Assembly (NCBI GenBank): GCA_026713485.1
Contig: JAPOOK010000024.1
Coordinates: forward strand, 1 to 38,035
Length of the DNA stretch: 38,035 bases
Source: Chloroflexota bacterium
GTDB lineage: Bacteria > Chloroflexota > Dehalococcoidia > UBA6926
Direction of reading: 5' to 3'
Numbering within the stretch: position 1 is the first letter of the stretch; every line of letters begins with the position of its first letter. The notes under the pieces are model-generated. The model saw nothing but the letters and a program-made list of their open reading frames with translations. It made no database searches and was not told the origin of the DNA. The translations under genes were made by a program, and so were the position numbers. Of this stretch, positions 25,203 through 26,755 are shown in pieces.

Positions 25203-26030
25203 TCACACCTCAAGCGGCGTATCGTCCCGGTTCGCCCACTCCCGCATGGAACCGTCGTAGTTCCGCGTGTTTTCATAACCAACAAGCCGCATGACGAATA
25301 CTCCGTGCGCCGCACGGATGCCGCCCTGTCAATACGTGTAGACATTCTTGTCCGGCGTGATGCCATGTTCAGAGAGCAGCCGCCGTATCTCGGACGCCGA
25401 CTTAAACCGATGTGTTTCGCGATCCATCAAGTTGAGCCACTCAAGGTGAACAGCCCCGGGGACATGCCCGGCGCGCGCGTTGGCGCGGTTGTTGGACCCG
25501 TCCCATTCGCCATCGGTGCGAACGTCCCAAACGACGGAATCCTCAAGCGTGCACGCCTCTTTCAGACCCTCTACTTTCACCAGCATTGAGTCGTCGAGGT
25601 TAGGGGTGAACGTTGCGCCTTGCGCTCGCGCCGGACGCTGAAAGCTGATCGCGTGGCCACCTGTGACCCACCCACGCCAGCCGCCGTTCAGAACTCGCGC
25701 GTCCCGGTGCCCGTACGTGTTGAGTACCCACCACAGGCGGGCCGCAGTCACACTCTGTCCGTTGTCGTAGCAGATTACCGACGTGTCGTCGCTGATCCCT
25801 AATCCTTCACACATCTCCTTGAACTGTGAGGGAGTCATCATCAGCGTGCGATTCGTGTCAGGGTCTTTCACGAAGTTGTCCGGGATCAGAACTGCTCCCG
25901 GGATATGGCCCCTGTTGTAGCCCGCGTCCACGTCACAGTCCACGACGACAACGTTGTCATCGTTCAAGTGCTCTGTTAGCCAATCCGCCTCGACCAGGTA
26001 CTCCGGATGTGCATAGTCCTCGGTAGTCAT
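25203..26030 (-). CDS. Putative selenocysteine-containing rhodanese (thiosulfate sulfurtransferase)
   Basis: This is a tandem-domain sulfurtransferase of 275 residues if the TGA at 25331-25329 is read through. The N-terminal rhodanese domain (residues 10-125, with AGYNRGHIPGAV) is the usual inactive one: its active-site loop reads CYDNGQSVTAAR, with Asp where a catalytic Cys would be. In the C-terminal domain (VWDVRTDGEWDG, AGHVPGAVHL), the strand NVYTY ends at the TGA, codon 234, and the frame continues QGGIRAAHGVFVMRLVGYEN, then TRNYDGSMREWANRDDTPLEV and TGA stop. The family reads YCQGGIRAAH here, so the TGA replaces exactly the persulfide-forming Cys. A hairpin lies 11 nt after the TGA. 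Selenocysteine is the best explanation; a nonsense mutation or sequencing error is the alternative. The ATG follows AAGGGGGAAG. Confidence 0.8.
25302..25318 (-). promoter_or_regulatory. Putative bacterial SECIS element
   Basis: On the minus strand TCCGTGC pairs with GCACGGA around a GGC loop, a perfect 7-bp stem. The stem opens 10 nt after the TGA and its loop lies 18-20 nt after it, close to the position of the loop in E. coli fdhF mRNA. The loop begins with G, as bacterial SECIS loops usually do. It encodes part of IRAAHG, so some of the pairing may be chance. Confidence 0.6.
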
Positions 26031-26143: not shown

Positions 26144-26755
26144 ATGAGCATCATTGATCGAGCGCAGAGGATATTCGGCGGCGCGACGGCGGTGGACAAG
26201 GATCGCGTTCCGCCCGGCCAGACCGTCACGACGAAGTTTCCTGTACTCTCCTACGGCCAGATTCCGCAGATTGACCTCGCCACGTGGACGTTTGAGGTCA
26301 TAGGCCTCGTTGACAACCCGATTCGATTCACGTGGGAGCAGTTTCTCGCCCGTGCCGAAGACACGGTCACTGCCGACTTTCACTGCGTTACAGGATGGTC
26401 CCGGCTCGATAACCAATGGGAGGGCGTCTTTGTCCGCGATCTATTCGAGGAGGCCCGCATCCGCCCAACCGCAGCCCACGTCATGGCTCACTGCTACGGG
26501 GGCTACACGACCAATATCCCGCTGGCGGCGCTGCTCAATCCTGATGTCCTGATTGCCCACCGGCACGATGGCGCGCCGTTGGAGTCGGAACACGGCGGCC
26601 CCGCCCGTCTCATCGTGCCTGACCGTTACGCATACAAGAGCGCCAAGTGGATCAAGGCGCTGGAACTTATGCCAGAGAATAAGCGCGGTTTCTGGGAACT
26701 CCACGGCTACAACTCCAACGGAGACCCGTGGCGCTCAGAACGCTACGACTTCTAG
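26144..26755 (+). CDS. Short sulfite-oxidase-like molybdopterin oxidoreductase
   Basis: This 203-residue member of the Oxidored_molyb (COG2041) group has the molybdenum-ligating Cys81 in the HCVTGWS motif, the phrase TFEVIGLVDNP at the front of the fold, and the segment HDGAPLESEHGGPARLIVP that binds the cofactor, as in MsrP/YedY. No Tat signal is visible, so it probably works in the cytoplasm, unlike periplasmic MsrP. Its substrate is not known. It is divergent from the putative Sec-rhodanese and could share a sulfur-related role. Its stop is 6 bp from the mgtE stop on the other strand. Confidence 0.85.
   Translation: MSIIDRAQRIFGGATAVDKDRVPPGQTVTTKFPVLSYGQIPQIDLATWTFEVIGLVDNPIRFTWEQFLARAEDTVTADFHCVTGWSRLDNQWEGVFVRDLFEEARIRPTAAHVMAHCYGGYTTNIPLAALLNPDVLIAHRHDGAPLESEHGGPARLIVPDRYAYKSAKWIKALELMPENKRGFWELHGYNSNGDPWRSERYDF

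What the first reader, a model, noticed from the sequence alone, without database searches (positions are those of the whole stretch)
25203..26030. Rhodanese with an in-frame TGA at the catalytic cysteine: probable selenoprotein
The sequence shows an N-terminal rhodanese domain plus a C-terminal domain whose frame is stopped by TGA at codon 234, then continues for 41 conserved residues (QGGIRAAHGV... ending TPLEV) to a second TGA. Rhodaneses have C-x-x-G-x-R there, so the TGA substitutes precisely the persulfide-forming Cys and nothing else. Chance nonsense at this exact codon, with an intact frame and family-like tail after it, is improbable. Established knowledge: Sec replaces catalytic Cys in many redox enzymes, and rhodanese-like selenoproteins have been proposed in marine metagenomes. 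Ordinary annotation would call a 233-residue protein lacking its active site.
Basis: partly seen in the sequence, partly recalled or inferred. Interest (0 to 1): 0.92.

Follow-up and report, generated by a model that had tools for sequence, protein, structure and literature searches.

The report
Selenocysteine at a rhodanese active site
A bacterial sulfur-transfer enzyme is encoded with a stop codon exactly where its catalytic cysteine should be, and the evidence says the cell reads that codon as selenocysteine; selenoproteins of this kind have been predicted before, but I found no study of a purified one.

Summary
On the minus strand, 26030-25203 encodes a two-domain rhodanese (SseA-like sulfurtransferase). 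Its frame is interrupted once, by TGA at 25331-25329, exactly at the catalytic Cys, and then runs 41 more codons. The selenoprotein reading is strongly supported. (1) The same genome has selA, selB, selD and a canonical tRNA-Sec. (2) In 115 homologous loci from the window's class, the aligned codon is TGA in 75, TGC in 33 and TGT in 7 (TGA rows were fetched by preference). (3) A hairpin whose loop lies 17 nt past the TGA fits published bacterial SECIS rules; 77 of 79 distinct Sec genes pass, against 3 of 40 Cys genes and about 7% of synonymous shuffles. (4) selA occurs in 71 of 74 genomes with a TGA form, against 183 of 319 others. It is not new in kind: a Sec-containing COG2897 rhodanese-related sulfurtransferase was predicted from Sargasso Sea DNA in 2005. 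Added here: one precise member, its spread in one class (most likely Dehalococcoidia), its SECIS element, and repeated Sec/Cys exchange on the tree.

The parts
25203..26030 (-). Sec-containing two-domain rhodanese (SseA-like sulfurtransferase) gene, ATG to final TGA, 275 residues read through
   Evidence: Translation; PF00581 in two stretches, 124.7 bits; 1uar match E 2.6e-46 over residues 6-273; AlphaFold2 model pLDDT 94.2, Foldseek TM 0.90 to 1uar
25329..25331 (-). In-frame TGA, codon 234, read as selenocysteine at the catalytic Cys position (U-Q-G-G-I-R)
   Evidence: Aligns with catalytic Cys; TGA in 75, TGC in 33, TGT in 7 of 115 homologous loci
25302..25318 (-). SECIS-like hairpin: 7-bp stem UCCGUGC/GCACGGA with GGC loop (25309-25311); stem starts 10 nt and loop 17 nt after the UGA
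   Evidence: Fold; stem and codon statistics; bacterial SECIS criteria met
25206..25328 (-). 41-codon tail after the TGA: active-site loop and the last strand and helices of the C-terminal rhodanese domain
   Evidence: 6 synonymous against 1 non-synonymous codon difference to L018; ordered in the model
26144..26755 (+). Divergent neighbour: molybdopterin oxidoreductase domain protein (PF00174); not judged part of the system
   Evidence: Pfam; found in 2 of 115 rhodanese loci, L017 and L018, both of the window's genus

Best explanation
The gene encodes a selenoprotein: a two-domain sulfurtransferase of the rhodanese (SseA-like) superfamily with selenocysteine in place of the catalytic cysteine of the C-terminal domain. 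UGA at codon 234 is decoded by SelB and Sec-tRNA(Sec) (made by SelA with selenophosphate from SelD), directed by the hairpin that begins 10 nt after the UGA. Shown by sequence: machinery, codon position, hairpin, purifying selection on the tail. Inferred: that Sec is inserted in the cell, and that the enzyme works like other rhodaneses, the selenolate taking a sulfane sulfur from a donor to form a Se-S (perthioselenide) intermediate held by the CxxGxR-type loop and passing it to a nucleophilic acceptor. The donor and acceptor are unknown.
For: Sec machinery in the genome: tRNA-Sec 69.5 bits over the cut-off of 47 and ARAGORN tRNA-SeC(tca); selB 307.9 bits, 328.3 with its neighbours in the frame; selA 537.6 bits; selD 388.4 bits, itself with one in-frame TGA at HCAG-TGA-AAKL. 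Codon 234: 75 TGA, 33 TGC, 7 TGT of 115 loci. selA in 71 of 74 genomes with a TGA form against 183 of 319 others, Fisher p 4.7e-12 (on my tally of the lists). G004, a genome of the same genus, has neither selA nor the TGA gene at the thresholds used. Hairpin: at least 6 of 7 pairs in 74 of 79 Sec genes against 12.2% under synonymous shuffling; 2 of 40 Cys genes against 6.7%. Codons locked in Sec forms: Arg CGT 67/75 against 10/40 in Cys forms, next Ala GCG 71/75 against 11/40 (a few Cys loci have another residue there). L132 keeps the stem by a paired change that alters two residues (Ala to Ser, His to Asn; sequence). Fold: model TM 0.90 to 1uar.
Against: No proteomic or Se measurement. 3 of the 74 TGA genomes show no selA at E<=1e-60 (G032, G195, G356; completeness 71, 78 and 91%). 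Sec genes L103 and L106 fail the hairpin criteria with a 6-bp stem, and 3 of 40 Cys genes pass them. The folding energy of the window stretch alone is only modest (z -2.0; 12 of 200 shuffles fold as well). No gene neighbour of the window gene is shared beyond the genus to support a sulfur pathway.
Confidence: 0.94

Rival explanations
1. Nonsense mutation, sequencing or assembly error, or pseudogene: the TGA is a real stop or a wrong base in a dying gene.
For: The gene comes from a 72-contig draft genome and raw reads were not available.
Against: TGA at the identical codon in 75 of 115 loci, with only Cys codons in the other 40; a 94%-identical copy in another genome keeps it; tail under purifying selection; Sec rows lie in several separate parts of the tree.
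Confidence: 0.01
2. UGA is read as cysteine (or another residue) by a variant UCA-anticodon tRNA or another code, not as Sec.
For: Reading of UGA as Cys through variant selC-like tRNAs has been described in some bacteria (recalled, not from a call); relatives have Cys here.
Against: The tRNA looks like a normal tRNA-Sec (8-bp acceptor stem by my reading of the sequence printed; scored); selA, selB and selD pass their cut-offs; a SECIS-like hairpin follows; 71 of 74 TGA-form genomes have selA.
Confidence: 0.03
3. Translation normally stops at the TGA and the 233-residue product without the active-site residue has a separate role; readthrough is minor or selenium-regulated.
For: Sec insertion competes with termination (recalled); the genome also encodes a Cys SseA-like paralog, L021, that could take over.
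Against: The tail is conserved and contains the active-site loop and final core elements of the domain; nothing found here points to a function for the short form.
Confidence: 0.04

Closest known systems
Sec-containing rhodanese-related sulfurtransferase, COG2897 (PMC1088965, 2005; also PMC2398784 cd01449 and COG2897; PMC9312934 MQG53192.1; PMC13188914 'form 4', UxxG, MCY3690685.1)
   Same: By its description: SseA-type (COG2897) rhodanese with Sec, UxxG motif (U-Q-G-G here), bacterial SECIS downstream, Cys homologs widespread
   Different: The published sequences were not held, so no letter-by-letter comparison; those papers list few sequences (3 in 2005; 8 plus 1 in 2008), while here 79 distinct Sec genes were examined
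Thermus thermophilus rhodanese 1uar and M. tuberculosis SseA 3hzu
   Same: Same two-domain fold, 36% and 34% identity in the fold match, aligned catalytic residue
   Different: They have Cys and the loops CRIAERSS and CRIGERSS; here the loop is UQGGIRAA
NCBIfam NF041203 rhodanese-related (seleno)protein and NF045694 TsoB
   Same: Rhodanese-domain selenoproteins by name
   Different: A short (126-position) model and a rhodanese/DsbD fusion-like model; the window protein scores far below their cut-offs (36.9 of 115; 20.6 of 805)

Membership tests
Bacterial selenoprotein (SelB/SECIS-decoded UGA) | In-frame UGA at a position that is Cys in homologs | tested here: met
   75 TGA, 33 TGC, 7 TGT of 115 loci
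Bacterial selenoprotein (SelB/SECIS-decoded UGA) | selA, selB, selC, selD in the genome | tested here: met
Bacterial selenoprotein (SelB/SECIS-decoded UGA) | SECIS: 3-9 nt loop with G in its first two positions, 4-16 bp stem, loop 16-37 nt after UGA, MFE <= -7.5 | tested here: met
   Criteria from a figure legend in PMC13188914 (passage); the window's 17-base hairpin folds at -9.9 kcal/mol with a GGC loop at spacing 17
Bacterial selenoprotein (SelB/SECIS-decoded UGA) | Sec present in the protein | not testable with these tools
   Needs mass spectrometry or 75Se labelling
Two-domain rhodanese / SseA-like sulfurtransferase | Tandem rhodanese domains, catalytic residue in the C-terminal domain, CxxGx[RT]-type loop (motif recalled) | tested here: met
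   PF00581 in two stretches; alignment to 1uar; G237 and R239 invariant in the 12- and 18-row alignments; model
Two-domain rhodanese / SseA-like sulfurtransferase | Sulfurtransferase activity | not testable with these tools
   No assay possible
3-mercaptopyruvate sulfurtransferase equivalog (NF008557) | Score at or above the curated cut-off of 250 bits | tested here: not met
   136.8 bits; not filed as an MST
Sec-containing COG2897 family of PMC1088965 | COG2897 member with Sec at catalytic Cys and UxxG | tested here: inconclusive
   Architecture and motif fit, but COG models and the published sequences were not held

The most novel reading that the evidence does not exclude
In this class (most likely Dehalococcoidia) the sulfurtransferase is an old Sec enzyme exchanged with Cys many times, and the SECIS hairpin, not catalysis alone, has shaped the active-site loop: Sec forms mostly hold UQGGIRAAHG with fixed codons, one lineage (L132) pays with two residue changes to keep the stem, and Cys forms drift to other residues and codons. 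If selenium is chemically needed in the Sec clades, this would be a natural perthioselenide (Se-S) sulfurtransferase.
Probability: 0.45. Interest if true: 0.55.

Novelty: new member of a known kind. Interest (0 to 1): 0.42.

Why it matters
Standard annotation would give a 233-residue protein without its active site. The many Sec and Cys versions in one bacterial class, some in the same genus (G061 and G107) or the same genome (G348), offer matched pairs for asking what selenium adds to sulfur transfer. The nearly fixed hairpin gives a clear test case for SelB recognition outside E. coli and for how a coding SECIS constrains an active site.

Tried and rejected
Operon evidence for a substrate: the divergent PF00174 molybdopterin oxidoreductase suggested sulfite or sulfur oxidation, but a search with eight window neighbours found it in 2 of 115 loci only, L017 and L018 (flanks of 1.5 or 3 kb at most). 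Clustering the neighbours of 62 of the Sec loci printed the 14 largest clusters: the largest (22, 20 and 15 loci) lie in families f16 and f22, which are sister clades, and two of their representatives start with low-complexity stretches; no printed cluster holds the window's locus. These clusters were not annotated further. Viral contigs: 35 pattern matches, none encoding a relative. Rfam at gathering scores gave one match in the window, a tRNA. An MST assignment was rejected on its cut-off. A covariance model to look for the same hairpin elsewhere in the genome was considered and not built, because coding conservation would dominate it. Literature: searches; SAR202 plus selenocysteine gave 2 papers, which from the listing look unrelated. 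I saw no purified Sec form of this family in those listings, two of which were cut (20 of 36 papers, 12 of 31), and I read passages of five papers only.

Full report
Observation. The minus-strand frame 26030-25203 encodes 233 residues, a TGA at 25331-25329, 41 further residues and a final TGA. Pfam finds rhodanese domains in two stretches, and reading through raises the score from 90.4 to 124.7 bits. In the phmmer alignment to 1uar and 3hzu, residue 234 falls on the catalytic-loop Cys. An AlphaFold2 model of the read-through protein, with Cys standing for Sec, has mean pLDDT 94.2 and matches 1uar with TM 0.90.

Machinery. The window's genome (1.9 Mb, 72 contigs, 91% complete) has tRNA-Sec over the Rfam cut-off, named tRNA-SeC with anticodon tca by ARAGORN, and selB, selA and selD over their curated cut-offs. 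selD has its own in-frame TGA, at HCAG-TGA-AAKL, the known Sec site of SelD as I recall it.

Conservation. In the window's family, 4 of 5 genomes have a match at E<=1e-30; G003 (94% identical) and G002 (35%) have one TGA in their best match, the other listed copies none. In the class search, 198 of 393 genomes have a match at E<=1e-40; of the 150 rows printed, 74 have one TGA (my count). I examined 115 loci: 7, 28 more, the 60 other TGA rows that one search printed, and 20 of its 60 other rows without a stop. At residue 234 the codon is TGA in 75, TGC in 33 and TGT in 7. The TGA share is not a frequency, since TGA rows were taken by preference. Titles of L132-L137 read Dehalococcoidia or Chloroflexi. 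L134 (Dehalococcoidia isolate ANT-39) matches the G256 locus, and G256 is in the window's class, so that class is most likely Dehalococcoidia (inference). Two genomes outside the class, G493 and G570, also show one TGA in a match; its position was not checked.

SECIS. Counting the U of the UGA as 0, bases 13-29 form UCCGUGC-GGC-GCACGGA (window 25318-25302). Seven of seven pairs form in 50 of 75 Sec loci, and six or seven in 70 of 75; of 40 Cys loci none has seven and two have six. With synonymous codons reshuffled by each gene's own usage, at least six pairs are expected in 12.2% of draws, against 74 of 79 observed; for Cys genes 6.7% against 2 of 40. Arg239 is CGT in 67/75 Sec and 10/40 Cys loci; Ala240 is GCG in 71/75 and 11/40, some Cys loci having another residue there. 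Six loci of family f4 (L058, L059, L063, L065, L067, L111) use a stem shifted downstream, with loops such as GGUC, AGUU or GUUC. L132 has a paired change that keeps the stem while changing Ala to Ser and His to Asn (my reading). With the criteria printed in PMC13188914 (figure legend) and a minimum stem of 6 bp, 77 of 79 Sec and 3 of 40 Cys genes pass, against 7.5% and 7.0% of shuffles; with 7 bp, 60 of 79 and 3 of 40 pass; L103 and L106 fail. The window stretch alone folds only moderately better than shuffles (z -2.0, 12 of 200 as good).

Selection and evolution. L017 and L018 differ after the TGA by 6 synonymous and 1 non-synonymous codons, and before it by 66 and 15. A quick tree of 134 rows (the 115 loci and 19 of the 80 named ones), with the catalytic residue and the ten after it left out, needs 11 Sec/Cys changes (at least 6 forced by starred branches), against 42.1 in shuffles. 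The tree is drawn from its midpoint and 41 of 130 inner branches are open, so gain and loss cannot be told apart, and long rows are unsure. L097 (Sec) and L129 (Cys) are sisters from one genus, and both genomes have selA. selA is found in 254 of 393 class genomes at E<=1e-60. Of the 74 genomes with a TGA form among my loci (73's printed rows, G002), 71 have it; of the other 319, 183 do. I tallied this from the printed lists; TGA genes in rows that were not printed would sit among the 319. G004, of the window's genus, has neither selA nor the TGA gene at these thresholds.

Function. G000 and G003 also carry a Cys SseA-like paralog with the loop CRIGERSS (L021, L022). The Sec protein is not an MST by that model's cut-off, and the donor cannot be read from the loop. 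The window gene's neighbours are not shared beyond the genus in the loci examined; some neighbours are shared within and between families f16 and f22. By analogy with rhodaneses, the selenolate should accept a sulfane sulfur and pass it on; this is inference.

Prior knowledge. PMC1088965 (passages) lists a rhodanese-related sulfurtransferase, COG2897, 3 sequences, among new Sargasso Sea selenoprotein families, and its Figure 3 legend names AACY01016424 for the predicted SECIS. PMC2398784 (passages) lists 8 Sec sequences under cd01449 and 1 under COG2897. PMC9312934 (passages) has it in its table after the heading for predicted families, with MQG53192.1. PMC13188914 (passages) lists form 4, UxxG, MCY3690685.1; I did not see its sub-heading there. 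The finding is therefore a well-supported new member of a predicted selenoprotein family. I did not see the class-wide spread or a biochemical study in the listings, which is weak evidence of absence.

Noticed in passing
L014 (G000:C41:8378-9301): selD of the same genome is itself a selenoprotein gene (in-frame TGA at HCAG-TGA-AAKL); two hairpins follow it in the predicted fold.
   Followed up: partly
L058, L059, L063, L065, L067, L111: Sec rhodaneses of family f4 use a hairpin shifted about 3 nt downstream with other loops (such as GGUC, AGUU, GUUC) than the common GGC type.
   Followed up: partly
L059 and L124 (both genome G348); L062 and L104 (both G069): One genome carries Sec and Cys versions of the subfamily; another carries two Sec versions.
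   Followed up: no
L021 (G000:C68:1704-2537): The window's genome also encodes a Cys SseA-like paralog with loop CRIGERSS, 35% identical to the Sec protein.
   Followed up: partly
window 26144-26755 (+): Divergent PF00174 molybdopterin oxidoreductase 113 bp upstream of the Sec rhodanese; seen in 2 of 115 loci, both of the genus.
   Followed up: yes
L100|- 848-2213 downstream of the Sec gene, and like clusters in families f16 and f22: Convergent downstream proteins with low-complexity N-terminal stretches recur beside Sec rhodaneses in 20-22 loci of f16 and f22; not identified.
   Followed up: no
G493:C27:32420-33244 and G570:C6:149932-150663: Homologs with one TGA outside the class but in the phylum (family f135); TGA position not checked.
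   Followed up: no
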